DNA from: Limnoperna fortunei
Lineage: Eukaryota > Mollusca > Bivalvia > Mytilida > Modiolidae
NCBI GenBank assembly: GCA_944474755.1
Contig: OX104115.1
Span: 36,219,080-36,283,079, forward strand
Length of the DNA stretch: 64,000 nucleotides
Reading direction: 5' to 3'
The translations under genes and the position numbers were made by a program. Shown piece by piece: positions 3,347 through 47,865 of this stretch. The notes under the pieces are model-generated. The model worked only from the letters and a program-made list of their open reading frames with translations, had not been told where the DNA came from and ran no database searches. Within the stretch, counting starts at the first letter, position 1, and each line of letters starts with the position of its first letter.

Positions 3347-6000
3347 TCATATTACTTTATGGATGGTTAAATCCTTTTCACAACAGCTGCACACCTGGTT
3401 GACCATCAACTCGGATTCATGCAAAACCAGTTCTGCGGCTTCATTTTCCCCTACAAGTTCTAAAGCAATATAATAAATCAAGTATGATAATATCTTATAT
3501 ACAATATTTTCCGGAATAAAATAATTCATAGTTATAGTAGCTTCCAAAGCCCTGACTGAGTTATAACATTGACTGATATACTTTCGATGGTAATGACACA
3601 AAAAACAAAGAAAATGTGCGTAGACTGCCGGTGGTACAATTATAAATTGTTCGTTTTAAAAAAATCTTTTTATCACTTTTGGAATTAGAGAACCATCATA
3701 AAACAACGGAATGTAAGAAAGACCCAGCTTAGTACAAGCACATAGGACTCCCATTTCCTTCAAGCAATTTAAATTTAGTATTTCATGCAATTTGCCTGAT
3801 AAAAAATTATTTAGCCTACATCCAATAAAGACTTTTTCTGCCGAACACTTTGTCAATGCATATGAAAGAACATAACAGGCTATATTGTATTGTTTCATTT
3901 TATAGAAAAAAGAGGCTAAAATAAGCCAACCCGACACGGCATCGTGATATAAACTCTGTAAAATGGAGCATAATGATGTTTTATATTGTTTATATATTGC
4001 TTTGTTTCCATTTTTGGCAGGGTACCACAATTGAGATCTGTGGAAATGGAAAATAGAATAACAGAACAGAAATATCAGTTTTAGTCGTGAAGAGTCCAGA
4101 AGAGTTATGTTCTGAAGCAATCTTTTAACACTGTAATTTAATGATTTTGCATCAACGCAAATATAATTGTTTAATATCGTCGACGAAAGAATATCTTCAA
4201 CGGAATTTGCAAACGACAGTGAGTTGTAACTAAATAAATTTTTTTCAGTGTGGAATTTCTGTAATTGTTTTGAAAGAAAAATACAGCGCCATTCCAAACT
4301 AATTAAACTGGTTAGATTTTCAAGCAAATGTGTACGCCTTCAATTTTGTTCTCAAACAAGTTATGGTCCTGGATGAAAAAATGAGGACACATTGTATATT
4401 TTACGCAATATATCAATCTTTTCACGCAATGCATGAAACATGGGATAAGATTTTCTGCTCACCACAAAGATACTGGCAACTCTTCTGATACCCAGAAAAT
4501 AATAGTTTTTATGAAATATGAACAAAGCACATCTTCGCATCTCTTGTCTCGGTTGATGACGTCTTTTAAAAGAATTTTCATCAGAGCATAACACACTAAC
4601 TGGGTATGTGTGAAAGAATATATCAGTAGCTTTTCACCAACGGAGAATGAAATTCTCCATTCTATGTCTTCGTTTGGTGATCCTGTACACCCTATAGGAA
4701 CAAATAATACACCATGATCAATAATTTTTGACATGACATCAACATCAGGCCACATCCCGCGGTGCCTTGTTATCCATTGATTTGCTGGGCTTATCCAGGA
4801 TTTGCAATGTAAACAATATGCATTGTCCATATATCCGTGAATGTCAAATAGACATGGACCGTGGACAACTTCCATGTATTGACTTATATCCCATGGATTA
4901 TTTGGATTACTCTTCTGAAACAATTTGTAAAGTTCACTAGATAGATACAAAACTCCATCAACTTCTCTGCATAATTCAATGTCTTCAGGAGCATAAGTGT
5001 GTAGTAATCTTAACTTAGTAAAGACACCGTTAGTATCTTCCATAGCATACACAGAACGTGTGTAAGCTGGGTCAAACTCTACTGTAGTTTTATCCTCAAA
5101 CACTGGCATTTTCCAATCTACATACATATAATCCTTATCACTTCCCTTCATTTCTAATCCTTCTCCCAAACTACCGCTTAGAATTCGCGGGAGACTACAA
5201 CGATCTTCCATACGGCTTCTAACTGTACTTATCATCCTCTTCATCTTTACTGAATTTTCCGTCCCGACGATATGCTTACACATGTAGTTAAACAAAGCTT
5301 TAGACATCTCAACGTTCGATGCTGTAAGAAAAGGATAAACGTAAACAACTTATTATTACAACTTACACAGCAAATAAAAAATAAAAATCTGATGATCTTT
5401 TTTTCGACATTATCTCTATCATATAACTATATATACGTACGAAAACCTAACAAGACATAGTAATAAATAGAAATTTGGCTAAAGTGTTACTCAAACCGGT
5501 TACTGTACTCGTTTGTATAGTTTATAAACTAATAAATTAAGAAGCTACCCTGGCTGTTTGATTTTTATAGCATTATTTTAACATCAGCCATATTTGACGA
5601 AAATTTAAATAATGTAATTGATATATCCCTGTGATATGATGACCTGCTTAACAGACAGTACAACAACCGTTTGTTATGACGCTAGTGGTGTCAATACATA
5701 CCAACGATTACCAAAAATATTTTTAAACGGGTATTTTGATAATATTATAGTATTTATTTGAATATTTATTTCTGTTAATCACCAAATTAAATGTTACTGA
5801 TAATTGCAAAATTGTTTTAAGTCTAGTGTAAATTTACATTTGTTAATCATTCCAATTCTGTGACAATTTTCAAAACGGAGCGTATATACAAAGTTCTTTT
5901 GTGCACCAATATAAATTTTAATCATATGTTTGTAAAAACAAGAAAAAATGTCATTTTATAGATCTATATGATGTTTTAACCAAAAATGCTTACCTGACAT
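3347..6000 (-). pseudogene. broken cGAS-like / Mab-21 domain nucleotidyltransferase
   Basis: Two-exon model. Exon 1 is the ATG codon at 6000-5998 plus TCA G, followed by a GTAAGC donor at 5993; exon 2 starts at 5321 after a CTTTTCTTACAG acceptor, restoring one frame into MSKALFNYMCKHIVG. The N-terminal core holds the nucleotidyltransferase signature SGSLGEGLEMKGSDKDYM, with both acidic residues of the SDKD motif kept. A Mab-21-type helical half follows (ISFSVGEKL, HTQLVCYALMKILLK), then a TPR-like C-terminus. This is the cGLR family, cytosolic nucleic-acid sensors that make cyclic dinucleotides upstream of STING. Three lesions are seen: an in-frame TGA at 4459-4461 after PVSLW, a frameshift near 4328-4335, and an in-frame TAA at 3656-3658. 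Homology continues past each one down to 3347. The N-terminal 282 codons are uninterrupted. It could be a pseudogene or an allele damaged by assembly errors; the preserved splice sites argue against a retrocopy. Confidence 0.82.
5322..5993 (-). other. phase-1 intron of the cGAS-like gene
   Basis: GT at 5993-5992 and AG at 5323-5322, with a pyrimidine-rich acceptor tract. Splicing joins ATG TCA G to CA TCG AAC GTT GAG ATG, giving a short N-terminal extension in frame with the nucleotidyltransferase core. Confidence 0.65.
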
Positions 6001-7447
6001 TTTTGCTTAGGATATCAATATTCCTATACAATACAGCTTTATTATTCGTCCATTTTCACGAGGCGATTGATTCTCAGCATTGATATACAATGTATTTATA
6101 TACTATAACAAGTGTATCATATAGTTCTTAGAACCCTGCAGCGGACGTGAAAACAATATGTGTTTTGTTTTAATTTTTTGTAGCAACAGCAAGAGATAGG
6201 TTTCCACTTTTAATTTCCTCACTTGGGTTATAAGAATCATAAGAATATGTGTATGTTTAACACAAAAATATTTTCTTTCTCTACACAATTCTCCACAATT
6301 CTTAAAGGAAATCTAAGTTTTCTTTACATTGGTTAAACCCTATTTCTCAGTTGACTGTATAACGTGTTTTCGTCCTACATATATAGCTAGGCGTAAACCA
6401 ACAATTCAATCAATTATATTATTCATAATCTTATTGTAATTTAATCTTATCTAATCTTACATTACGATGGCATATTTGATCTGAACCTTCATATTACGTT
6501 TCTATTATTTATAATAGAACATTCTTTTCTCATTGCATCATTGTACATTTATCTATTTTTATCAGAAAAGAATTGTAGATTCGACTGTATACAACCAAAT
6601 TAACATCTTTATGATATTCATAGATAGTGTCCCACATATTCCCCACAAATTGAAATTTGCATAGTTAGGTAATTGGCTCTGAACTGTTGGAATTTGCTTT
6701 TTGTTTTTTTTAATAAATTTTGACACTCTTGTTCTATAAAGGCAACAAGTTTCGATGGGGAGATGTATTATATTAAACCTGAAACATGAAGCAAGATTGT
6801 CTCCTATTTGAAGGATATGGCCTCCATGGGTTATGGATGCATATGCCAGGAAGTGTTGATTTAGCCTTTGGGGTATGCAGTGCATTCAGAGTTAAGAACC
6901 ACTGAGAGCCCATTTAATATGAAGTGTTTTTACTTATTTATACGAAAGTGGCCTGACGTAGGCCTATCGCCTTCGAAATTGCGAAAGCAAAAGTAAGTAT
7001 ATTGCAGTTGACATACTTTACTTAACTATATGTTATTGTTGTGAAATATGATCTTGGAAAAAGACTTCAGTTAATATTTAATGTTGATGAGAAGGATGTG
7101 AAACTTAACCACACCCCCCCCCCCCCCCAGTATAGGCGATGCCGGATATCAGCCTCCTGCAATTTCTGTTGGTTACTTTGAAACATTCACTATTCTTGAC
7201 TGTGTAAATACCGCATAGTATGCAATTCCATAATTCCTCCATATACAGTATTTATTGGTCAGAAAATTCAGATTAGATGGCTGAAAAATGTTACACATGG
7301 GACTGATTGCACTGTTTGTCTTACAGGCTGGTCTAATTCATAAACCTTCATCAAGTATTCGCATAATCCTTTTCTTCCACTTGTACCTGGAAAAGATGAC
7401 ATATTTTACTATTATTAGATGGTCGAAAATATAAGATTGATGATGGT
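6001..7447. other. non-coding stretch upstream of the cGAS-like gene
   Basis: It should hold the minus-strand promoter of the cGAS-like gene, but no convincing core element was identified. A run of 15 C residues lies at 7114-7128. Nothing else recognised. Confidence 0.4.
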
Positions 7448-7731
7448 GGGGTTCTTCAAATCTGAAATCTGCTACACTTGATAACTTACAGTCTGCATTT
7501 AAGAAGACACTGATTTCTCCACGGTTGAATGGCAGTATTTACATTGGAAACTTTGCACCTTATGAAGTATGTAATTATTTGAATAAGAGAGAACTTGATG
7601 TGGTAAAGAGTATAGATAGTACAATTGAGAATGGAGAGGATAGTAAAGGTCAGGGTAGTCAAATGCAAGTTGCGAAGGAAGACAAAGAAATAAAGGAAGC
7701 GGGAGAAATGGCGAGAGGAAAGACACTTTAA
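7448..7731 (+). pseudogene. possible coding remnant, unknown family
   Basis: An open stretch without a convincing start reads LQSAFKKTLISPRLNGSIYI and then GNFAPYEVCNYLNKRELDVV, followed by a charged, coiled-coil-like tail, to a stop at 7729-7731. Its composition is more protein-like than its AT-rich surroundings and suggests a piece of a mobile-element or host ORF. No family was recognised, and chance cannot be excluded. Confidence 0.25.
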
Positions 7732-34280: not shown

Positions 34281-37262
34281 CTAATTATCACTCTTGGTTA
34301 TCAGCTTCAACATCGCTCTGGTTACTTCATCTCCAAAGGTATGAAACATGCCAGATGACGCAGCTGTTTTCAGATACTCAGCACGAACCATCCAATCTGG
34401 TTGGGCGGTTTTCAAAATTGGCGGTTGGACATAATCTTTGTATTTCGTTGTTGCTGTAGATGTTCGTGTTCTGGTAGATCGTCTAGGTTGTGCAACTAGC
34501 TCTTCATTATCATCATTATATTCATCTGTTGTTCTAGCATCATCGTCTGGAATTATACCAGCAGCTCGATCTTCTTGCGTTGTATCGAGCCCTGAACCTC
34601 CTGATTCCTCAGGCGAAGAAGCGTCCTCCTCCGGTCCAGAGTCCTCGTGTTCCTTGGTGCGGTCCCGATCGTCATCGGCGTTACCAGAAACAGTAGCTAC
34701 CTCTACAACCAATTGCTGATCGACATCTTCTGGGATGTTGTCATCAGGTTGTCCAAAATGAGGGGTATCCACTACATAATAAAGAACTGATTCCTCCTCA
34801 CTCTCTTCGTCAATGTCTGAAGCAACATCAATTGGAGTAGTCGGAATCTCTGGTAAAGCTGGTTTCTTTTCTCTTGGTCGAGGAACAGGCTTCTGACGAG
34901 TTGTGATCTCCTCAGTTTCCTCGTTGAAAATTCCAATAGGGAGCAGTTTGTTTCTGTGTAGAGTCTTCCTCTTCCCTTGTCCATTTTCTTTCTTTACAAT
35001 GTAAACAGGTACATCAATGTTGGGTTGGTCGAGGATGATATAAGGGTCTTCCTCCCATATATCTTCCAACTTGTGTCTTCCTTCGTGTGCAAGGATCTTT
35101 ACAAGCACTCTGTCTCACTTGTGCAGAATGGCTCCTTTTACTTTGGTGTCATAAGCGATTTTCTGTTTACTTTGTGCCTTGTCTGCAGCTGACGATGCTA
35201 ATTCGTATGATTTCTTTTATTTCTTTCTCAGATCTTCAATATATTTTGTCATTGGTTTTTGATCGCTGTCGCTGTTAAGTCCAGAGCTTAAATCCACAGG
35301 TAATCTAGGTTCCCGTCCGAACATTAAAAGGAACGGTGAAAATCCTGTGCTGTCGTGTCTTGTTGAGTTGTAAGCGTGAACTATGGGAGCGATGTAAGAT
35401 TTCCAATCTCTCTTCTGGTCTTTTTCCAGAGTGCCAAGCATGTTGATAAGGGTGCGGTTGAAGAGTTCGCACTGTCCGTTGCCTTGGGGATGGTATGGTG
35501 TGGTACGTGACTTCTTAATGCCGGCTATCTCACACAACTCCTTGACCAATCGGCTTTCAAAGTTGGCACCTTGATCTGTATGGATTCTAGCTGGTAATCC
35601 TTAGTGAACCACGAAGTTCCGAAAGAATGCTTCAGCCGTTGTTCTGGCAGTCTCATTCTTTGTAGGGATGGCATGAGCGTATCGTGTAAAATGATCAGTG
35701 ATCACCAATACGTGTTGATATCCTCCCTTGGAAAATTAAAGCTTTAGAAAATCCATGCAGACTATTTCCATGGGCTGTGTTGAAACAATGCTGTGCATCG
35801 GAGCTCTGTCACTTTGTGGTGTTTTCCGCCAAATACATCTCCTGCACTTCTGAATCCAATCTTCGATATCACGTGTCATTCCGTGCCAGACGAAGCGGTC
35901 CCTTATCATTGATGTGGTCCTATCTCTTCCCTGGTGTCCCATGTTGTTATGGAGAGCAGACAAAACTGTAGAGATCTGAGATTCGGGTAGTACAAGTTGA
36001 TTCTTTGTATCATCTTTGTTTTCTGTTCTTCTGTACAACACACCATCTCTGATCAAAAGTCTATAAAAGTTGTTGAACAGGGCATTACTAAATGGTGACG
36101 TTGGAATATCCTGTTTCTTCGGCTTAGTTTTCTTGCTAACCATTTCCAACCAATACTTAATGGTAGGATCGTTGAGTTGTTCCTCTCTGATATCTAGTTG
36201 GTGTTCTTGGAACATGTCTGGAATATCAACTAAATGATGACCGATGGACTCGATGTATGGAGTAGGCTGAGAAGATTTGCAGATGGCTTTCACTGACTCT
36301 TCTGTGATGTTATCTGGATGGGTCTTAATGCCAGGTAATCGTGACAATCCATCAGCATCAGCATTGTTCTTTCCTGGTCGATAGACGATGTTGAAGTCGA
36401 ACGATGCTAATGCTGCTAACCATCGGTGTCCTGTTGCATCTAATTTGGCCGTTGTTATGGCGTAGGTCAAAGGATTGTTGTCAGTGACGACTGTGAACTT
36501 CTGTCCATACAAGTAATCTTTAAATTTCTCAGTTACAGCCCACTTTAACGCTAAAAATTCTTGTTTGTGCACAGGATAGTTCTTCTCTGACTTTGTCAGG
36601 CCTCTGCTGGCGTAGGCAACAACTCGTGGTTTCCCTTCCTGTGTCTGGTACAGAACTGCACCGAGTCCGTTCTGGCAGGCATCTGTATGAAGTTCGAACG
36701 GGTGCTGGTAGTCAGGAAAACTCAAAATAGGTGGAGTGGCTAGGTGATTCTTGAGTTGTTGAAATGCTTTTTCCTGTTCCTCATCCCAGTGCCATGATTT
36801 TTGTTCCGGATTTTTCTTTACTTTCCTCCCTCTGGTTTTCTTCGACGTAGATGGCATGAGATCGGTTAGAGGTCTAGCTATTTTGGAGAAGTCCTGTATA
36901 AATTTCCGGTAATAACCTACAAAACCAAGGAACTGGCGAACTTCTTCAGGAGTTGTTGGTCTTGGCCAGTTGACAACCTTGTCAATCTTCTCTGGGTCTG
37001 GCTCCACTCCATTCTCCGACACAATATGGCCAATGTACTTCACACTGCGTTGGAAAAAGGAGCATTTCTTAGGTGACAGTTTGATTCCAACCTCTCGGAG
37101 TCGCTCAAAGACCCTCTCGAGTCTGTCTAGATGTTCCTCCGGAGTTCGTGAAAAGATGATCAGGTCGTCTAGGTATATAAAGCAAATCTTAGTATGGAGA
37201 TCCCCCAACATCTCTTCCATTAATCGCTGGTAAATGTTTGTTGTATTCGCTGTCTGGTACAA
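34281..37262 (-). pseudogene. Gypsy pol remnant: RT C-terminus, RNase H, integrase
   Basis: From 37262: RT resumes at YQRLMEEM and keeps the YLDD active site (residues 30-33 of this frame) and the YIGHIVSENG / FLGFVGYYRKF connection. RNase H follows with acidic residues in LHTDACQNGLG, HKQEF, TDNN and ADADG. Integrase has the HHCC zinc motif (HNNMGHQG to CRRC), and the three acidic core positions are visible (CMDFLK, HTDQGANF, GQCELFNR). The C-terminal domain after DRVLVKILAHEG carries an Asp/Glu-rich tail to 34281. In-frame stops: TAA 35736-35738, TAA 35601-35603, TAA 35217-35219, TGA 35115-35117. The first two-thirds of the RT is deleted; the protease end abuts RT near 37215-37245 in a different frame. 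Not functional. Confidence 0.93.
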
Positions 37263-37311
37263 CTAGGAACAAGCATGGGTAAGTCTTGTTGGTTGTGTCT
37301 GGAACCTGTAA
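37225..37311 (-). pseudogene. C-terminal end of the Gypsy protease, cut off by the DNA transposon
   Basis: The minus-strand frame reads VPDTTNKTYPCLFLVVPDSE, the usual end of a retropepsin-like region, and continues the protease that stops at 46613 on the other side of the 9.3-kb insertion. It runs straight into the RT deletion junction. Confidence 0.72.
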
Positions 37312-37772
37312 GCGAAACCGGAACTTGGTACTAGTTGAAGCGAGGCACGTCAAGTGACCAATGTCACTGAAGGTAAGAAAGTTTATTTTTTTCATATTTT
37401 ACCCACCTTTTTAAGTCGAGGAAGTAGTCTTTTGGAGCATACGATAATTGAGAAGTTGTGTGCCTTTGAACATAGTCGTATAAAAGGTTTATATGTGAAT
37501 ACGAGATAAAAAATGTTGACCTGGTACCGATGAAACGTGAGATCGTGACATCTAACATCATAAAATTAAACGATTTAACGCATATCTGATTGAACTAAAT
37601 GATAATTTTTGCTTAAACTATTTTACTGATAATAAAAATATATAAAAGAACGATGCTGAGATTGAAATGCCGAGTAAAATCTTGGAAACAATATCGAACT
37701 GGTGTACGGCAGCTTATTGTTATTTAGACAAGCAATGTACGGCAGCTTGAAAAATTTAGCGTACGGCAGCTT
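37312..37772 (+). repeat. left 461-bp TIR with three iterons and a splice donor
   Basis: Pairs with 46152-46612 nearly throughout. Iterons GTACGGCAGCTT lie at 37704-37715, 37737-37748 and 37761-37772. CACTGAAG|GTAAGA at 37373 is a strong donor pointing inward. Confidence 0.9.
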
Positions 37773-38039
37773 GTAATATCAATATGTAAAATTGTGTCAT
37801 ATTAGCGATTTACCTGTGTTTTCAGTCCTATTTTCGAACTAAAAACATGATTATACATCTTGGACAAAATTTTCTGCTGGGAATTTTCCATTTTGTTATT
37901 TTTATATTTAAAAAAAGAATACGTATTATGCTTCAATATCTTAATCTAAACACGAAACAAAAGATGATATCAATTACAAATCCATAACAAGCTATACGAC
38001 ATTGAGAGTTGTCCGATACGATAAGTCTATAAATGGTGT

Positions 38040-38320
38040 GTGTGGGGGTGGGGGGTGTCCGAATGGTCTAGGTAGTTCTATCTGAATAGATTACTGTAGG
38101 CTTTCACCTCTACGCTGTCGGTTCTAACCGCGCATCGGACATTTGCAAAAATGACTTATTATAGTATGTTCAACTAGCACTGAAATGTGAGAGGGTTTGT
38201 TCGTTGCTTGCCGCAGGTCGGTTGTTCTCCGGCATTATCCGGCCTCCTAAATCAGTGTAAATGACGTCACGATATAGTTGAATTATTGCTGAAAGTGACG
38301 TTAAGCCCTAACATGAAGTG
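38040..38320 (+). repeat. second type of tRNA-headed SINE
   Basis: Head GTGTCCGAATGGTCTAGG (A box) and GTCGGTTCTAACCGC (B box), closing with CGGACA, so an acceptor-like GTGTCCG/CGGACA pairing remains. The body includes GGCATTATCCGGCCTCC, and the tail GCTGAAAGTGACGTTAAGCCC resembles the tail of the 20.2-kb SINE. Lies in the putative 5' intron of the zinc-finger gene. Confidence 0.72.
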
Positions 38321-38563
38321 AAATATTTATTTAAATTATCTCGTTAACCTTTGTTAGTAATTTTGTCAAATTTCACGCTAAAAATTTTTTGGCACTCTCT
38401 CTCTCTTTTTTTTTTGGGGGGGGGGGTGTAGTGTTGTCTCATGTTTTTCATTTTTGGCTAATAGCTTTCTTCCGTCCACAAATGCCAGTTTTGAAGTATA
38501 TAGTTCACATTTAATTTTGAGGCTATCTTAATGTTTATTTTTTTTTAACATTTTACTTTTTAG

Positions 38564-39160
38564 ATGAATTCATCTATGTTGTCTGTGGACCTATCAGGGG
38601 AGGAAGAGGATGTCAGGCGAGTTTACAACTGTACATCTTGCGCGTACTATACATACAACAAGAGCAATCTAAACAAACATATGAAGAGAATGCATCGCGA
38701 CATCCGAAAACCAGAAACCAGCACTTGGATTTGTGATACATGCGGAAAAGTTTTAAAAAGTAAATTTGGTTTAGAATTGCATGTGAAAAATAGCCATACA
38801 AAAGAAAACCGATACTTATGCAACGTATGCCAGAAAGGTTACAATCAACGAATTCCGTTCCGTTATCATTTAGCGTCCCACTCAAATGTTGGACTGGACA
38901 AATGCAAGGCATGTAGAAAGGAATTTAATTCAAGTGGATCGTTAAAAAGACATTTGGAAACTTGTCCATCAAGTAAAAACAATAACAGGCCGAGTACTTG
39001 CCCCATCTGCCAAGCTACATTTGCTAGAAAATACAGATTGGATGAACACCGCCGTGGAAAACATGGAGAAGGGAAATATGCCTGTTCCTTGTGTGGAAAA
39101 ATATTTGGCTGGCGTTCATCGCTAAAAGCTCATTCAAAAGTCTGCAAACTGAAGATTTAA
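38564..39160 (+). CDS. C2H2 zinc-finger protein, six fingers (transposon cargo)
   Basis: 198 residues. The acidic N-terminus (residues 1-20) is followed by six C2H2-type fingers with Cys pairs at 23/26, 57/60, 86/89, 114/117, 146/149 and 174/177; fingers 4 and 6 end in His-Cys rather than His-His. A sequence-specific DNA-binding role is expected of such arrays; a role in binding the element's own ends is inference. The ATG at 38564 directly follows a CTTTTTAG acceptor, so a 5' non-coding exon is expected; the donor in the left TIR (37373) is the natural partner. AATAAA lies at 39289-39294. The frame is intact, unlike its neighbours, which suggests recent activity. No nuclease domain is present. 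Confidence 0.88.
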   Translation: MNSSMLSVDLSGEEEDVRRVYNCTSCAYYTYNKSNLNKHMKRMHRDIRKPETSTWICDTCGKVLKSKFGLELHVKNSHTKENRYLCNVCQKGYNQRIPFRYHLASHSNVGLDKCKACRKEFNSSGSLKRHLETCPSSKNNNRPSTCPICQATFARKYRLDEHRRGKHGEGKYACSLCGKIFGWRSSLKAHSKVCKLKI

Positions 39161-39300
39161 CATTCCTCGTGATTTGTAGCTTTTAATTATAATTTTTATT
39201 GTTACTACGCAGATAGCCTTTCTCATTTATTTGCTCAAATATTTATTTTGTTGTTATTTTTATTTTGTTTTTGAAAAACACGAGGTATAATAAAATATTA

Positions 39301-40411
39301 CGTATATTTTGCGTTGTTTTTGTATTATATGTTATGCCATCACTGCGTCCGTCGCCGTCGCCGTCTGTAAACTTTTATTTAAAAATCTTCTCTTCTGAAA
39401 CCGCTTAATCAAGTGCAACCAAACTTGGTCTGGTTGTTCTTTAGGATGTCCTCTACAAAACTATATGCTAACAATTTTAGGCTAAGGGCGGAGATTCAAC
39501 AAAAATACCAAACAGGAATATTCAATCTCAATATCCATGGAGGGAAGACACAATCATGTATAAGATTACCGGAGATTTTAAATCACAACAGTCCTGACTT
39601 AGTACAGGCATTTCAAATGAAATGGTGGGTTAAACCAGTTTTATGGTGCCGAACCCCCCACTCGCATTGCAGTAGTCCGATTTAATTTGGCAAGTTTTTT
39701 AATCCCATTTTTTAAAAATGCACTTAAAAGTTCTTTCTGGTGTAATGGAAATGAAAAAAAAAGATTCGGAAGTAAAAAAGGGGTATTTTCTGACATTCAT
39801 AACAGCGTGAAATTACAGCTTCGGAACATAATTTTTTACATGCTGTACACATGCAAATGTGACTAGACACACTGGTAAAGAAGACCAAGAAAAATACCAA
39901 ATGAATAGTTTCTAAAATAAAGAAAGAATGTGTCCATGGGACACGGATGCCCCCGCTGGCCTAAAAAGTTTACGTCCGACAGGTTTGAAAGTCGCTTAGG
40001 ACGCATAGTTTATCATACTGAACCATCCTACTAAGTTTCAAATCATTCCCATGTACGGTTGCTGAGAAAAGCTTGACGGAAATCTTCATGTTGATTTTGG
40101 TATCTATCCAGCGCCAAACAGGAAGTAGATGTCCGACAGGTCTAAAATTCGCTTAGAACGTATAGTTTGTCATACTGAACCATCCTACCAAGTTTCAAGT
40201 CATTCCCATTTACGGTTTCTGAGAAAAGCTTGACGGAAATTTTCGTACGGACGGACGTACGTACGTACGTACGGACGTCCATGAGTAAAACTTAATGCCC
40301 CCCGACATGTCGTCGCGGGGGCATAAAAAAAAACAAAGTCAGAAAACGTAATACACGATTTAAAAATTATAATTATTTAAATCAAACTAGATCTAGTTCA
40401 AGGTAACTAAA
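39301..40411. other. intergenic region of the TIR transposon with dispersed repeats
   Basis: At 39340-39660 there is a GTCCGTCGCCGTCGCCGTC repeat start. At 39946-40330 a repeat holds two ~160-bp copies (CATACTGAACCATCCTAC, GAGAAAAGCTTGACGGAAAT) ending in ACGTACGTACGTAC and a GCCCCCCGAC / GTCGCGGGGGC hairpin. These are dispersed repeats, not part of either gene. Confidence 0.6.
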
Positions 40412-40583
40412 TTAGTCAATCTCGATGCCTAATCTCTTGTGGGCCAAAATCTTGCTCTCATCACATTTGTGGTGTTGCCGCACAGGAGCAACACCTCTTG
40501 CAGCTTCATCTGGCTTTGCAATAGTCACCAATCGTCGTTTAGGTTTCCGTTTTGCTCGTTCAATACTATCAAAAATGTGATCC
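40412..40583 (-). CDS. last exon of YqaJ/putative transposase gene
   Basis: An acceptor TTTTACTTTTTTAG precedes position 40583. Joining AG (ending at 41426) to GGATCACATT restores an Arg codon and an in-frame, basic 57-residue tail: DHIFDSIERAKRKPKRRL, then RQHHKCDESKILAHKRLG, ending in TAA at 40412. The basic stretch may act in nuclear localisation or DNA contact. Confidence 0.75.
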
Positions 40584-41425
40584 CTAAAAAAGTAAAACAT
40601 TACAGGTAAATATGACAGTTACACAATTACAACAAGATATATTTGTGAGCTAATGCTCACTAGTGATACCACGCTGTTTTCTAAAATATTTTACCATAAT
40701 TGATTATCCCATTACATTCGGCGAAAATTTCCATCTATGTCGACTGTGTGTAAAAACCTACGTATGCAGCAAACAGGAAGTAGATGACCTAGGAGCATAA
40801 AATCGCTACACACCATATTGGACCTATGAGCACAAAATCGCAATACACCATATGGTTTTATAGGATAAAGCTGTATGCAAAATATCAGACCTGTACCTCT
40901 TGTAGTTGCTAAGAAATCTGTTTTATTACGGACAAAAGAACGACCAACGGACGAACGGACGGACGGAAGGACAGACAATAGTAAAGCAGTATACCCCCCA
41001 CTTCTTCGAAGAGGGGGTATAATGAAAGGGATATGGAGTATATATAGGCATGACACAGAATCACACAATAAAAGAACACCGTTTTCATTAATACTCTTCA
41101 CCCTATAGTCACAGGGAGTTTTCCAACGTCAAGTGTATATGTGTACTAAAGCCAGGGATTTCAAAACACCCTTTTTAGGAGTATTGCCCAGCACAGTGGG
41201 AAATATTGGGAAAACCGAGATTTTACTGGGTTTTACCGGGCAATACTGGGTACTTATTTTATTTCCTATAAAATTATCATTTTTGAAAAGGGGAAAATGA
41301 TATTATTGGGAAAATGCTTACAAATGCTTAACATGACACAAGGGTAAATAAAAGAAAACAACTGTAAATACTATCTGTATAACCACCGTCCACAAAATAA
41401 TAAAAAGTTCTGAACAATATCTTAC
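40584..41425 (-). other. 842-bp intron of the YqaJ/transposase gene with a dispersed repeat
   Basis: GTAAGA donor at 41425, AG at 40585-40584. Most of it (about 40640-41040) is a repeat with CGGACGGACGGAAGG tracts and a terminal TATACCCCCC / GGGGGTATA hairpin. Confidence 0.7.
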
Positions 41426-44400
41426 CTTACAGATATTTTGTGTACTATTGACGGGTAAATATAAAGAACATCGACTTCCATTCTTTCATCTGTATGTTGA
41501 AGGGCATTTACTGGATAAACTTTGGCTTGAGAGGTGTTCAGAAAGAATGGGCGACTTGGCATGAACCTAGTGTGGTTCATTTGACACGCCGATTCTATAG
41601 CTGAAGGAATATCTTCGGCTTTTATAACACCCGACCCTTTAGGGTCCAAGTCCTGGAACTCACCGAAGAAATTTTCGGCTTCTAAACTTCCAAGTGACCG
41701 TACATTGAAACGCCCAGATTTCACATAGGGATATATTTGTATTCTTCGGTCTATATTTGTTAAGTATCCTTGAAACATTATATTAGGGACTCCTCTAATG
41801 TGAGTTCCATAAGGCGGGAAGCTTAGTAAAGAAACACCATTCAATAACCAATTGCGAAGTACCAATCGTCTACAACATGTTTCTATTGCTGGTATACCTG
41901 GCGAATCCTCTGATTCATGAAACTCACGCATAATACGACAAAATGCTGCCTCTTTTTTGTGCCCCAATCGTTCCATTTCCGTTTCGACGCTTAACGAGAA
42001 TGTTGCCATTGCAATTGAGTCACTCTGCTTGTCTACGATATCTTCAACGTGAGAAATTTTTAGGTTCGTATTGTTGTTTTTTGCAACTTCTAACCATGCT
42101 TCCTTTTTAACTCCTCTCTCTGGAAATCCGTCTTTACACACTTTGACTCTACAATTGGTTAAAAGATGATGAATATCTAAGAAGGAAAATAAGTACGATA
42201 ATGTCGAAGGATTGTACTCAGGTCTAGAAAACCATATTACCTCACCAATGCCATCTACAAAGGTAGGTGTCTGAAAACAACTCTGCATTCTCCAGCTTGC
42301 AACTTTTTCTTGAAATTTATTTTCAGCTACTGCAGCATTTAGAAATTTTTTTGGAAGTGATCTCACAACTTTTCGACAAAGATTGACCAGAGTCTCAGGT
42401 TGCTTTTTCTTTTTAGCTTTAATTGGAGGAGATATTCGCGCACTTGTCGTTGCTTCAACCATCATATCTACAATTTTAGGTTTGGCCCAGGATTTACAGA
42501 TGTGAAGAGGTGTATTAGCATTTTCTTCTTTGAATACGTCATAACATAGCAAAATAACTTTCTTAGTCAATTTAGACATGAGGTCTCTGTTGCACATAAG
42601 TCTTTGAAATTCCTCAAACGTTTGTGGATATTTCTTTGACCATTCTTGGCGTTTTTGTACATACTGAAAGATTTTAAGAAGACAATCTCTATTTATGATA
42701 TTTTCAGAATCGACAGTTTCAATATTCGATAATGTTTCTCTCATATGCATATCGGCAACATCATTACTTTCTAACGCAAAATTTTCAACACAGGGTTCTG
42801 TTTGTTCCCCAGAAGTCTCCACTTGAAGAATGTCACTCTTTTCATTACTGACAACCATAGTTTCATCGAATAAGTTTTCATTGTCTTGTTCGTAAAGGCG
42901 GTCATATTCGAGGTCATTGACAATATTTACCCGCCTCGCACTACTTGTACAATGTTCCTGTTCCAAAGACGAGAGTGATTCTACAGCCGCGTTATCAATG
43001 CTTGCCATTGCCGAAGTAGGGAGATTTGACAACGCTTGATTTACATTGAAATTTCCAATTTCATCACTGTCATTTGTCTTCGTCGTTTTCTTTTCTCTCT
43101 TGCAAGTATGCAAATACGATAATAAATTTGAAGACATTCGATACAGCTTTTGTCCGTCTTTTAAACCTACTATGATACCTGATTTATTTCGTTGAAAATA
43201 CAAATTTTCTGTAACTTCTAAAAAGCTAGTAACTTTAACTAGTCCTGTCGCAAAGATTTCGTCATGAAGAGATTTCGCATTTCGTGTCTGGATTTCACAA
43301 AAATGCTTCTTCTGTAGCTCTAATATGGTTAAGGGCTCTTCATTTTCATCATGAAAAGCTAGCTTTGCCCACTGTCCATCGTATGATATGACTGGACAAT
43401 ATATTCCATAACGGAAAAGACTTTCAAGGACATCTTGTAACATTTTCCTCATTTGTTCTGCTCTCATACTATATCCCTTAAAGGCAAACGCTACAGGACA
43501 TGCATGAGGCATTTCTGCTTTGTACGTCCTGTCAAGGTCAGCAAGCATAAAAATCAAGACTTCTGTTGCTCTCAGTGTGCAAATCTTATGACATTCACTT
43601 ATGACATCTTCACATTTTATAAAGGTTCTCACAATTTCATCTAAGTGCAAATTACATTGTGTAAGGTTAATACATTCTTCGTGATAAATTCGCATATCTG
43701 AATTATTAAATGAAGAATGTTGACACGGAATAGCCGTACAAGACGGCAATTCAGCAACTAAGCGGACATTTGACTGACAAAATTCTTTTATTGAATATCT
43801 TATATCTGGGATATTCGGGTTTGTCACTTTGGGTATACATTTGTAATCAACAGTTTGAATAATGTTGTAAATTTTCTCCCATAAATTGGTATCAAAGGAG
43901 ACCTCCATAACCGTCATTGATTGGTCTGAAAATGACAAAAAAAGAAGTTTGTCAACTCCTAGTGAATTCATTTCACTTAATACTTGACACACGTAGTAGT
44001 GGGGGATGCCGTAGTGCACAGGGGTGGTGAATGTTTTATCAGGAAAATGGCATTTAATTTCTACACCATATATAGGTTTTTCGTCACTTTTTGTCCTTAG
44101 GCTTCCGTCCGGACTCACAACCAGAACTGTTTTGTCACCTTCTTTTTCTATATCCTTCTTCGTAAAAGGATAAATTTGGAGCAAAGGCAGGTAGGTACTT
44201 TGAAACCAATGTTGCTACAGCGTTAAGTTCATTTTTACTTCCGTGGTCAAACTTTTTTTGTAATTCGCTTGGGATTTCTTTTTCCGGTAGTTCTCCAGCT
44301 TTAATAAGAAGGTGCTCACGTTGTTTTTTTAAACCGTCTAGACCAATTGCAATATTTATACTACTCCCTGTGACAGTGGATTTTTTACGCTCGCTAAACC

Positions 44401-45784
44401 AAGCATCAGATCTCTGTTTTATCAAAGATGGGGTATATAAACAATTGCCCGTAAGGCATACCATATTGCCCTGTTTGTTCAATGAGACTATTTTCTCTGT
44501 CTTAAAATTTGATCCGGCATTCTTGATCAACGCAGCATACGTGCACAAAGAATCGTTGCAATTCACCAAGACCTCAATAGTATTTTCTATTTGATAAATT
44601 GTTGTTTTGACACTACTGATAACTATTGAAAATTGGCTATTTTTCCAATCAGTTTCACATTTGTCTTGAAGTTTTTTCAAAAACAGAACTTTTTTCACCT
44701 TCAGTTTTCTAAGATCACATATTCGTTCGCTGAGTATTGTCACAGTCTTTCTACATCCGTCTAAAATATGCTTCTTGTCATGTTCGCTGCAAGACAACAC
44801 AGCACAATGGTCAAAGGACAATAATTTTTGCAACAGTTCCTTTAATTCTCGCACATAGTTTAATTCGCTTGTAAGTCTAGATTGTCTTTCTCTAAATGTC
44901 GGAGAATCCTCATAACCCCAAAGATCTATTTCTCCTTTCGAACACGGGTTAATCTTTTTGCCATTTACGCAAAGTTTATATGTTTTTGTATGATCAGGAT
45001 CACATGCTGCCAAAGATGCAATCATGGCATTCATAATACCAGGAGACTTTTCGTCCACAACTTTTTTTTCATCCTCTAACATTTTCCTATCTGGAACGAT
45101 AAAGTTAATTTTTGAGGAAAAAGAACCAGAGTCAGCATTTCCACCAGTACATTTCGGGCCGCCCATAAATCTCAAAAAACGTCCGTGAAACAAACGTAAA
45201 CCGGTTTTCCAAAATAACTTGATTTCATTCGAGTATCGCATGTTATGAATTCCGTCACCAGTTCCAAACCACCTAACAACATCTAAAAAAAGCAAAAATG
45301 CTATATTGTCTAAAGGAAACGTTCTATCCTTTATCAGTTTATGAAAGAGTATAAATTCAGTTAATTTACCAGCTTTTTTTAGTTGTTCTACAACAGAGGG
45401 AAGCAGTGATATTATTTCTGAGTGTTCATTGTCCTTATTGTCGAGATATAAATCAGCTTCGCCAGTTTCATTTACTGCTTCAACATTGGCTACTACATCA
45501 TTATCGCTAGATTTTGTAACTTTTCCACAAGGACTATCTTTTACAACATTATTACATCTGGAAATGTGAATTGTGTTTGAACTTTCATTTATTGAAATTG
45601 TTCTTCCTTGTTGGCGGCATATTTCGGGAATTATTTTAAAATTATTAACTCTGGTGTTGTTTTCTTCCTTTATGGAAAATTTAAGAGTTTCTTCAGGATG
45701 GAATTCAATCAGATGTGTCACTATTTCCGAAAAGGTTGAATTGTAAATCTGTTTACAGTATATGCACATGTAACATTTACTCAT
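41422..45784 (-). CDS. YqaJ-like nuclease fused to a putative DDE transposase (one frameshift)
   Basis: The first frame (45784-44135, 549 codons) starts after a TTTGCAG acceptor. It has a CX2C...HX4H finger at residues 7-29, a conserved-looking middle (MRYSNEIKLFWK, RFLRFMGGPKC) and the start of a YqaJ-type PD-(D/E)XK domain (WFSERKKSTVTGSS from 462, HGSKNE 514-519). The second frame (44184-41422, 920 codons) completes it: VSPDG (23-27), YGVEIKC (39-45), HYGIPHYYVCQ. A long region follows with ISYDGQW (Asp269), FLDIHHLLTN (Asp670) and SLEAENFFG (Glu835), a spacing and context suggestive of an RNase-H-fold DDE enzyme; this assignment is tentative. The frames meet with a one-base shift near 44145-44165 in an A-rich run. 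The final exon is at 40583-40412. No family name can be given with confidence. Confidence 0.8.
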
Positions 45785-45792
45785 GGCTAGGC

Positions 45793-45939
45793 CTGCAAAG
45801 GAAAAAAAGGTAGTTTAACATAGGATATGTATTATGACTGTTTGTTTTTTAATATCGTTCAATACAGTACAAAATCATTCATAACAATGAAGTTGACTAT
45901 GTTAAGTTTGAGTAGGACGTAGAAGAAAATGAGACTTAC
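45793..45939 (-). other. 147-bp 5' UTR intron of the YqaJ/transposase gene
   Basis: A perfect GTAAGT donor at 45939-45934 and a TTTTTCCTTTGCAG acceptor ending at 45793 flank it, 8 bp before the start codon. Confidence 0.6.
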
Positions 45940-46151
45940 ATGCAATTATTAGAGAGGTGGGTGTGACCCGAGCGGCGGCGGAATTTAAGAACACCATCAT
46001 TACAAATAAGTGTTGGTCATACCCGTTTTGAAATGTTTTTTTTACAGAGACAATCCTCTTGAAAACAGTTATTAGTTGTTTATATATCATGTATGGCAAA
46101 ATGAAATGCGATATGAAACTTAAAAACAAGGACATTTTGTTTTATCTTAAC
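45940..46151. other. 5' non-coding region of the YqaJ/transposase gene
   Basis: Lies between the 5' UTR intron and the right TIR; the leader exon(s) should lie here. No coding potential. Small frames on both strands at 45902-46310 are AT-rich shadows. Confidence 0.45.
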
Positions 46152-46612
46152 AAGCTGCCGTACACAAAACAAATAGTAAATTTGCAAGTTCCCGTACATT
46201 TGTGTCATAAGCTGCCGTACACCAGTTCGATTTTGTTTCCAAGATTTAACTCGGCATTTCAATCTCAGCATCGTCTTTTTAATATTTTTATTATCAGTAA
46301 AATAGTTTAAGCAAAAATTATCATTTAGTTCAATCAGATATGCGTTAAATCGTTTAATTTTATGATGTTAGATGTCACGATCTCACGTTTCATCGGTACC
46401 AGGTCAACATTTTTTATCTCGTATTCACATATAAACCTTTTATACGACTATGTTCAAAGGCACACAACTTCTCAATTATCGTATGCTCCAAAAGACTACT
46501 TCCTCGACTTAAAAAGGTGGGTAAAATATGAAAAAAATAAAATTTCTTACCTTCAGTGACATTGGTCACTTGACGTGCCTCGCTTCAACTAGTACCAAGT
46601 TCCGGTTTCGCT
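46152..46612 (-). repeat. right 461-bp TIR with iterons and a splice donor
   Basis: Reverse complement of 37312-37772 with scattered differences. Iterons are at 46209-46220 and 46152-46163, with a degenerate one at 46186-46197. The minus strand carries the same CACTGAAG|GTAAGA donor at 46550. Confidence 0.9.
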
Positions 46613-47285
46613 CCCATACAGTGGTAATTCTACTTCAATGAAACCAATATAAGGCATTGGCTGTCCGTCAGCGCATTCAATGTGTAGAAGATAACTGAGT
46701 GACTGTAATGGTGTTGAGTAAAGGTGGTCGTTGTAGAAACTTTCGCTGATTGTGGATACAGTAGATCCTGTGTCAAGTAGAGCTTTAATCTGTAAACCGT
46801 TGATATTTATAGAAACTTCATTTGATGATCCTAAAAGTCCTGAAGTGTCTGATTGTTGGTTTGATGACTGTTCAAAGACAAAAGCTTGATGGAGGTTCAG
46901 AGCTCGAACTGTTTTTCTGGAGTGATCAAGGCGTACATGACAGTATGTAGAAATATGTCCAGGTTGGTTACATCTCCAGCATATAGTTTCATGTCTCTGT
47001 TGTCTATTAATAGGACGATAAATAATTGTCTCATCTGGATGATGTGGCGGGCAGGTGTCTCGTCGTCTGCACTTGATGTTCATTTCATCACGCTCTTCTT
47101 TCAAAGTCCTGACATCTCTCGAAAGCTGTTTTACTAAGGCTGTAAACTGCTGAATCTGTTTATTTTCCACAGTTGTCCGTTTAGCTGGAATGTGCGTCTT
47201 CTTTAGTGCTGGCTTTAGGTTATGTTGATTCTCAATCTCTCTTACTGCTTTAAGTAGTTCGTCAAAGTGTGTTATAGTGTCCTTC
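46613..47285 (-). pseudogene. Gypsy gag C-terminus (zinc knuckle) and protease, split by insertion
   Basis: This frame picks up the gag reading frame after a one-base shift near 47285-47300 and runs through YKKDTITHFDELLKAV-type sequence to the CCHC knuckle CWRCNQPGHISTYC and the retropepsin motif LLDTGSTVSTIS, with the single catalytic Asp of a dimeric protease. It continues to VELPLYG, where the DNA transposon interrupts; the remainder of the protease is at 37225-37311. gag and pro therefore share a frame in this element. Confidence 0.9.
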
Positions 47286-47865
47286 TTGTAACGGGAAACA
47301 TTTTTAGTTCCGGTCGAAGTCCATCGAAGAACTTGGAGGCTAGCATGTCATTGATCTCAGCTTCTTTGATGGTTTTTCTGTTCTTTGCTTTGCTTAGTAT
47401 CTCTTCCAGTCGACAAGCCCAGCGTACGACATCCTCATCTTCATGTTGTCTCGCAGTATAGAATTCTCCAAGCAATACTTCAGCAGGTGAAACAGAACCA
47501 TAAATGCTGTCCATCTTGTCAATGATGTCATCTATGTCAGCCTCTGGTCCAAGATGCATTAGGACTTTCATTGCAGTTTCTCTCATGGATCGTCTGATAG
47601 CCATCTTGATGGAATCATGGGTGTGTCCGGCTTGGATGAGGCATTTTACTTCATATCGCCAAAGATCGTATGTGGCGCCAGTTTTCTCATCTCCAGTAAA
47701 TGTTGAAATACGTGGTAAATACGCATCCCAGATATCATCATTGTCTTTGTATTCCTCCATCCACATCTTAAATTCCTCTGGCGTTGTTGCTGATGGTTTG
47801 ATGTCCATATCCTTGAAAGCAGTCATGATGTTGTTGATTTCATCCTGTGAAAGGTAATCCGACAT
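47272..47865 (-). pseudogene. Gypsy gag, N-terminal capsid-like part
   Basis: 197 codons from an ATG at 47865: a helical gag with DLWRYEVKCLIQAG, then LLGEFYTARQHEDEDVVRWA and a C-terminal domain reaching FFDGLRPELK. Structural protein of the virus-like particle. The frame then shifts and stops at 47272, while homologous sequence continues in the frame ending at the protease, so this copy has a gag frameshift. Confidence 0.88.

What the first reader, a model, noticed from the sequence alone, without database searches (positions are those of the whole stretch)
37312..46612. A 9.3-kb TIR transposon encoding a YqaJ-like nuclease fused to a putative DDE enzyme
Seen: 461-bp inverted ends, insertion inside a retrotransposon protease, and a large gene with YqaJ-type motifs (WFSERKKS...TGSS, SPDG, VEIKC) plus candidate acidic residues in SYDGQW, FLDIHHLLTN and SLEAENFF. 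Known: YqaJ/lambda-exonuclease nucleases are typical of phages and recombination systems, not of the common DNA transposon superfamilies. Inference: an exonuclease-coupled transposition mechanism in a superfamily that I cannot assign.
Basis: partly seen in the sequence, partly recalled or inferred. Interest (0 to 1): 0.88.

Follow-up and report, generated by a model that had tools for sequence, protein, structure and literature searches.

The report
Transposon with nuclease inside its transposase
A recently moved jumping gene in what is probably a bivalve genome encodes a P-element-like cutting-and-pasting enzyme whose predicted catalytic core is interrupted by a whole phage-type DNA nuclease, a combination that could help explain how such elements cut both DNA strands.

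Summary
The window carries one of at least seven copies of a 9.5-kb element (two are 5.1 and 11.7 kb; six aligned copies 99.5-99.8% identical) with about 418-bp inverted ends starting CACTGTATGGG. All six copies with two intact tips have 5-bp target duplications. The window copy lost about 13 bp at its left tip and is dead: frame break in the nuclease, first catalytic Asp reads Asn. Another copy keeps one 1455-codon frame.

YqaJ nucleases are known as a separate ORF (ISL2EU) and downstream of a transposase (KolobokE); my searches found none nested in the catalytic domain. Duplication length and missing THAP bar strict P membership. The nuclease's role is inferred.

The parts
37311..37717 (+). 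Left terminal inverted repeat (407 bp kept; the outer 11 bp CACTGTATGGG are missing in this copy)
46207..46623 (-). Right terminal inverted repeat with complete tip (reads CACTGTATGGGAGCGAAACC inward)
46624..46628 (.). Right copy of the inferred 5-bp target duplication GTAAT
   Evidence: comparison with the related uninterrupted copy C15:37604360-37604480
37308..37310 (.). Remnant (GTA) of the left target duplication (inferred)
37704..37772 (+). Three subterminal 12-mers GTACGGCAGCTT (starting 37704, 37737, 37761), candidate binding sites
   Evidence: exact matches: 3 on the left in 6 of 7 copies, 2 in C13
46152..46220 (-). Two subterminal 12-mers in mirror orientation (46152-46163, 46209-46220)
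   Evidence: 2 on the right in 6 of 7 copies, 1 in C15
38564..39160 (+). Second gene: single-ORF C2H2 zinc-finger protein, 198 aa, convergent to the transposase; open for 198 codons in 6 of 7 copies (changed C terminus in C14a)
   Evidence: 30% identical to the zinc-finger protein of family 2
44135..45784 (-). Transposase gene, 5' part in this copy: N-terminal C2H2-like finger, region aligned with P residues from 134 on, first RNase H strand with D1 (codon 44963-44965, reads Asn here), coiled coil, start of YqaJ; frame lost near 44135-44184
41422..44184 (-). Transposase gene, 3' part in this copy: rest of YqaJ (D561, E577, K579), D2 (D804), DxxH (D1205/H1208), insertion domain, catalytic E (E1372)
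43834..44416 (-). YqaJ / lambda-exonuclease-type PD-(D/E)xK nuclease domain (residues about 457-652 of the 1455-aa protein), nested between D1 and D2

Best explanation
The finding is one copy of a recently active cut-and-paste DNA transposon with two convergent single-ORF genes: a 1455-aa transposase and a small C2H2 zinc-finger protein. The transposase is predicted to have the fold of the P-element transposase (RNase H with D-D-DxxH-E and a helical insertion domain). Between the first RNase H strand and the strands that follow, that is between the first and the second catalytic Asp, it carries about 450 extra residues: a coiled coil and a complete YqaJ/lambda-exonuclease-type nuclease. SHOWN: bounded copies, ends, 5-bp duplications, the fusion in one ORF, conservation of both residue sets. 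PREDICTED from structure models: fold and nesting. INFERRED: the transposase, and perhaps the zinc-finger protein, recognise the CAC tips and subterminal repeats; the DDE site cuts and joins the 3' (transferred) strands across a 5-bp stagger; the nested nuclease acts on the other (5') strand, cutting or chewing the non-transferred strand at the element ends. In outcome this would resemble the TnsA (nuclease) plus TnsB (DDE) division of labour of Tn7 and the TnsAB fusions. I give the anatomy about 0.85 and the second-strand role of the nuclease about 0.45.
Confidence: 0.72

Rival explanations
1. The nuclease does not cut the second strand at the element ends. It resects the 5' strands of the donor break, so that the gap is repaired from a sister copy, which restores the donor element and raises copy number.
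For: Lambda-exonuclease-type enzymes degrade 5' strands from duplex ends (established knowledge, recalled); the structure match is to this exonuclease group. An internally deleted copy (C14b, 5.1 kb) is what interrupted gap repair would leave (inference).
Against: No excision footprint or repair product was examined; nesting inside the DDE domain suggests action at the active site rather than after release (inference).
Confidence: 0.35
2. [quoted passage not shown]
For: Kolobok shares the C/DxxH motif, and KolobokE has the same kind of nuclease (PMC9587614, sections 3 and 10). No Kolobok structure appears among the rows shown to compete with P.
Against: Kolobok has TTAA duplications and 5'-RR tips; here varied 5-bp duplications and CAC tips. 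The nuclease lies between D1 and D2, not downstream. No four-ligand zinc finger is conserved between DxxH and E: only 2 columns of that stretch hold C or H in 15 or more of 24 rows.
Confidence: 0.1
3. The nuclease is active but serves element defence (for example destroying competing DNA), or it is only a structural spacer.
For: The function of the additional ORFs, the YqaJ one of ISL2EU included, was stated to be unknown (PMC4482050, passage).
Against: D, E and K conserved in 24 of 24 members (in the 54-row set one Q and one T occur among 52 rows with residues) argue against a spacer; constant nesting argues for a role in the reaction (inference).
Confidence: 0.12
4. A host recombination gene or a domesticated transposase, with coincidental inverted repeats.
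For: Some public names call the relatives YqaJ viral recombinase domain proteins.
Against: At least seven near-identical copies at seven places, six with their own duplications, one inside a retrotransposon with a related uninterrupted site, and two further families with TIRs and duplications.
Confidence: 0.02

Closest known systems
P superfamily (Drosophila P element, THAP9, zebrafish Pdre2)
   Different: A coiled coil plus YqaJ nuclease between D1 and D2 (530 residues apart against 73 in P); 401 residues between D2 and DxxH against 36 in P; no THAP found; 5-bp, not 8-bp, duplications; about 418-bp repeats against 31 bp; a zinc-finger partner gene.
KolobokE (PMC9587614, sections 3 and 10)
   Same: DDE transposase and lambda-exonuclease-like PD-(D/E)xK nuclease in one element.
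   Different: Nuclease downstream of, not inside, the transposase domain; TTAA duplications; RR tips; zinc finger between DxxH and E.
ISL2EU (PHIS superfamily; PMC4482050, PMC9179366, passages)
   Same: Eukaryotic DNA transposon with a DDE transposase and a YqaJ exonuclease.
   Different: Two separate ORFs in most autonomous families; Harbinger-like transposase with HTH or THAP.
RAG-like (RAGL) and Transib transposons (PMC7204232, passages)
   Same: Tips begin CAC; 5-bp duplications; two convergent genes (RAGL), a DDE protein and a smaller partner.
Tn7 TnsA+TnsB and TnsAB fusions (PMC8188705, passages)
   Same: A nuclease and a DDE transposase, in some systems in one polypeptide; without functional TnsA copy-and-paste products prevail.
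   Different: Bacterial; endonuclease-type TnsA; no TnsC-like or targeting genes noticed in this element.

Membership tests
P superfamily | Signature D (strand 1), D (strand 4), [C/D]xxH after strand 5, E (helix 4) | tested here: met
   D274, D804, D1205/H1208, E1372 invariant where present in 24 members; D274 in strand 268-277 and D804 just after strand 797-803. The motif is shared with hAT, MuDR, Kolobok and Dada, so it is not diagnostic alone.
P superfamily | Transposase fold incl. helical insertion domain between strand 5 and helix 4 | tested here: met
P superfamily | Detectable sequence kinship | tested here: inconclusive
   PF21787 in 7 of 24 members at E <= 0.1, not in P0029 itself, best 1.4e-5; profile comparison with 34 THAP9-like proteins not above shuffled controls.
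P superfamily | 8-bp target duplication | tested here: not met
   5 bp in 8 of 9 insertions with both tips intact, none in the ninth.
P superfamily | N-terminal THAP domain | tested here: not met
   No THAP among the six families matched by 24 members at E <= 0.1; a C2H2-like pattern in the first 90 residues of 11 of 24 (several rows lack the N terminus).
P superfamily | GTP use and 17-nt staggered cut | not testable with these tools
   Biochemical properties (PMC7776569, passages).
YqaJ / lambda-exonuclease nucleases | Pfam PF09588 over cut-off, PD-(D/E)xK residues, fold | tested here: met
KolobokE / Kolobok | TTAA duplication, RR tips, nuclease downstream of the transposase, zinc finger between DxxH and E | tested here: not met
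   definition from PMC9587614 sections 3 and 10.
ISL2EU | Transposase and YqaJ in two separate ORFs | tested here: not met
   One ORF of 1455 codons, and the same order within single proteins of relatives.
RAGL / Transib | CAC tips and 5-bp duplications | tested here: met
   Three families start CACTG, CACAC and CACAC; duplications as above.
RAGL / Transib | RAG1/Transib-type transposase and RAG2-like partner | tested here: inconclusive

The most novel reading that the evidence does not exclude
A superfamily-level group of animal DNA transposons in which a complete exonuclease is inserted into the catalytic RNase H domain of a P-like transposase, so that one protein with two active sites (DDE and PD-(D/E)xK) handles the two strands of each end: a eukaryotic, nested counterpart of TnsA/TnsB that combines a P-type enzyme with RAG-like ends (CAC tips, 5-bp duplications).
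Probability: 0.4. Interest if true: 0.86.

Novelty: new variant of a known kind. Interest (0 to 1): 0.72.

Why it matters
[quoted passage not shown] A transposase with a built-in, conserved second nuclease makes that question directly testable by separate mutation of the two sites. If the models are right, the RNase H fold of a transposase can accept a whole enzyme between its first and second catalytic residues, besides the known insertion site between strand 5 and helix 4. It also joins a P-type enzyme with RAG-like ends.

Tried and rejected
Tried without result: tblastn of the 1455-aa protein in phage records (none) and a scan of viral contigs with the family (43 pattern stretches, none confirmed), so no viral source is seen in these two collections. 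A PDB sequence search with the family profile gave two weak hits, the better to LHK-Exo (E 0.015). Profile comparison with THAP9-like transposases was not significant (a nuclease piece taken along as a control behaved alike, 65 of 150). In 11 further diverged loci of the genome I looked for TIRs within the flanks held and found them in one (C3, family 3). A YqaJ locus with a long frame (C11, L061), fetched as a possible KolobokE, is a separate YqaJ protein without an evident transposase (SAP- and SWIM-like stretches recognised by eye, untested). In the viral structure library the named hits among the 17 at E <= 0.001 are exonucleases or nucleases of the YqaJ/Cas4 kind. No solved structure of Kolobok, Academ, KDZ or Dada appears in the rows shown, so their folds are not excluded.

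Literature: full-text searches of the held library: YqaJ+transposon+transposase (16 papers), YqaJ+ISL2EU, YqaJ+'P element', YqaJ+mollus, P superfamily/insertion domain/RNase H, Academ+XPG (none on transposon nucleases by title), TnsA/TnsB/TnsAB (8 listed), THAP9/bivalve/TSD (8 listed), alkaline exonuclease+transposase, KolobokE. Nothing in the listings, abstracts and passages that I saw describes a YqaJ nuclease inside a P-like transposase. Repbase and subscription journals were not searched. Seen as passages: PMC4482050, PMC9179366, PMC10225492, PMC7826175, PMC7776569, PMC8230255, PMC8188705, PMC7204232. PMC9587614: abstract, sections 3, 9, 10, 11 and passages. PMC10294476: searched for five terms, none present.

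Choice of rows: alignment A1 holds the protein and 19 of the 28 homologues; A4 the protein and 23 of 58 homologues, taken for length; A2 53 of 58 and A5 51 of 58 homologues; A3 34 of the 120 listed of 589 THAP9-like proteins.
Full report
Setting. The window lies on contig C5 of an unnamed 1.34-Gb genome. A bivalve host is likely (inference).

The element. A genome search with the left repeat gave 15 matches, all 15 candidates scored: seven pairs of ends and one fragment of about 1 kb. Sizes are 9.46-9.48 kb in C14a, C13, C7 and C15, 11.65 kb in C5 (with about 2.3 kb extra), 5.1 kb in the internally deleted C14b, and 9.31 kb in the window with its shortened tip. Six copies (C14b left out) are 99.47-99.79% identical to each other. 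The tips are CACTGTATGGG. The two ends of a copy match at 97.8-98.8% over 405-419 columns in six copies and at 92.5% over 495 columns in C14a. The 12-mer GTACGGCAGCTT lies three times near the left and twice near the right end, about 400-475 bp from the tips; C13 lacks one on the left and C15 one on the right as exact matches.

Target duplications. ATTAT, AATTT, ATAAT, AATAT, ATCAT and CAGAC flank the six copies with two intact tips (6 of 6). The window copy has GTAAT on the right and GTA on the left, where about 13 bp are missing; a related retrotransposon copy on C15 runs through the site. The host is a Gypsy-like element (aspartic protease, reverse transcriptase, RNase H).

The transposase. 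In the window the gene is split into two overlapping frames, and the first catalytic Asp reads Asn; C14a shares this Asn, while C13, C7, C5 and C15 have Asp (2 of 6 copies that keep the region; C14b has lost it). In copy C7 one frame of 1455 codons is open. The other copies with the gene carry stops, frame breaks or an insertion. Relatives keep the same order in one protein.

Conservation. In 24 near-full-length members D274 is D in 24 of 24, D804 in 23 of 23, D1205 and H1208 in 23 of 23, E1372 in 22 of 22, and nuclease D561/E577/K579 in 24 of 24, gapped rows set aside. In the 54-row alignment, with many fragments, the same residues hold wherever present, except one Q at the nuclease E and one T at the nuclease K. 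THAP9-like proteins show D414, D516, D556/H559 and E768 in 34 of 34.

Against this: sequence profiles alone do not reach significance against shuffled controls, and the intact protein has no PF21787 match at E <= 0.1, although 7 of 24 members do. The link to P is therefore mainly structural.

Other families. A genome search with the protein gave 37 matches, 32 of 122 candidates being scored. Family 2 (C12:55430714-55439557, 8844 bp; C7:64290384-64299452, 9069 bp) has 65-bp repeats beginning CACACTAGG, duplication TAAAG in the C12 copy and none in the C7 copy, and a convergent zinc-finger gene. Family 3 (C3:39503563-39507108, 3546 bp, holding only an N-terminal piece of the gene) has repeats beginning CACACCGTAC and duplication ATGCA. 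A further fragment (C7:81.24 Mb, L050) has a two-finger open stretch in the same convergent position. The zinc-finger proteins of families 1 and 2 align at 30% identity (E 5e-21), partly expected for any C2H2 arrays, but both have a last finger with WRSS.

Mechanism. Shown: the element moves as a unit and makes 5-bp duplications. Predicted: a DDE site that cuts and joins, and a nuclease site with conserved residues. Inferred: the nuclease handles the 5' strand. P transposase cuts the 5' strand 17 bp inside the end, by an order and mechanism not currently known (PMC7776569, passage); Tn7 needs the nuclease TnsA for cut-and-paste, and TnsAB fusions exist (PMC8188705, passages). A nested nuclease is a natural candidate for the same task; donor-end resection is the main alternative.

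Known or new. YqaJ nucleases occur in ISL2EU as a second ORF, and a lambda-exonuclease-like one in KolobokE downstream of the transposase. Nesting inside a P-like catalytic domain was not found in the searches listed under Tried and rejected. Because duplication length and THAP fail, I do not file it in the P superfamily; it is built, and probably works, like a P transposase with an added nuclease, and may deserve its own superfamily.

Noticed in passing
window 44963-44965 and copy C14a: The first catalytic Asp reads Asn in the window copy and in C14a, which sit at different places; copies with a dead catalytic site may have been moved in trans.
   Followed up: partly
window about 37221-37232: The surrounding Gypsy-like element lacks about 1.04 kb that other copies have between the two parts of this flank.
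   Followed up: partly
G000:C5:18550008-18561658: The C5 copy carries about 2.3 kb of extra DNA inside the transposase gene (element 5219-7558).
   Followed up: no
window 39966-40244: Two 122-bp direct repeats (89% identical), followed by a short CGTACGGA-like array, in the spacer between the two genes.
   Followed up: no
G000, e.g. C12:23622900-23625300 (L058): The same genome has 16 further PF21787 loci besides three of this kind; 9 of the 16 match the model nearly end to end, so they have no insert there.
   Followed up: partly
G000, 150 places listed: At least 150 YqaJ domains (150 of 312 candidates scored), all in listed open frames under 600 codons; one (L061) is a YqaJ protein of at least 580 aa. 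A possible source of the captured nuclease.
   Followed up: partly
protein P0044: A relative is filed under a bacterial symbiont assembly (Candidatus Thiodiazotropha); host contamination is likely (inference).
   Followed up: no
window 47272-47865: The gag-like ORF of the Gypsy-like element matches the PNMA family (E 1e-8).
   Followed up: no
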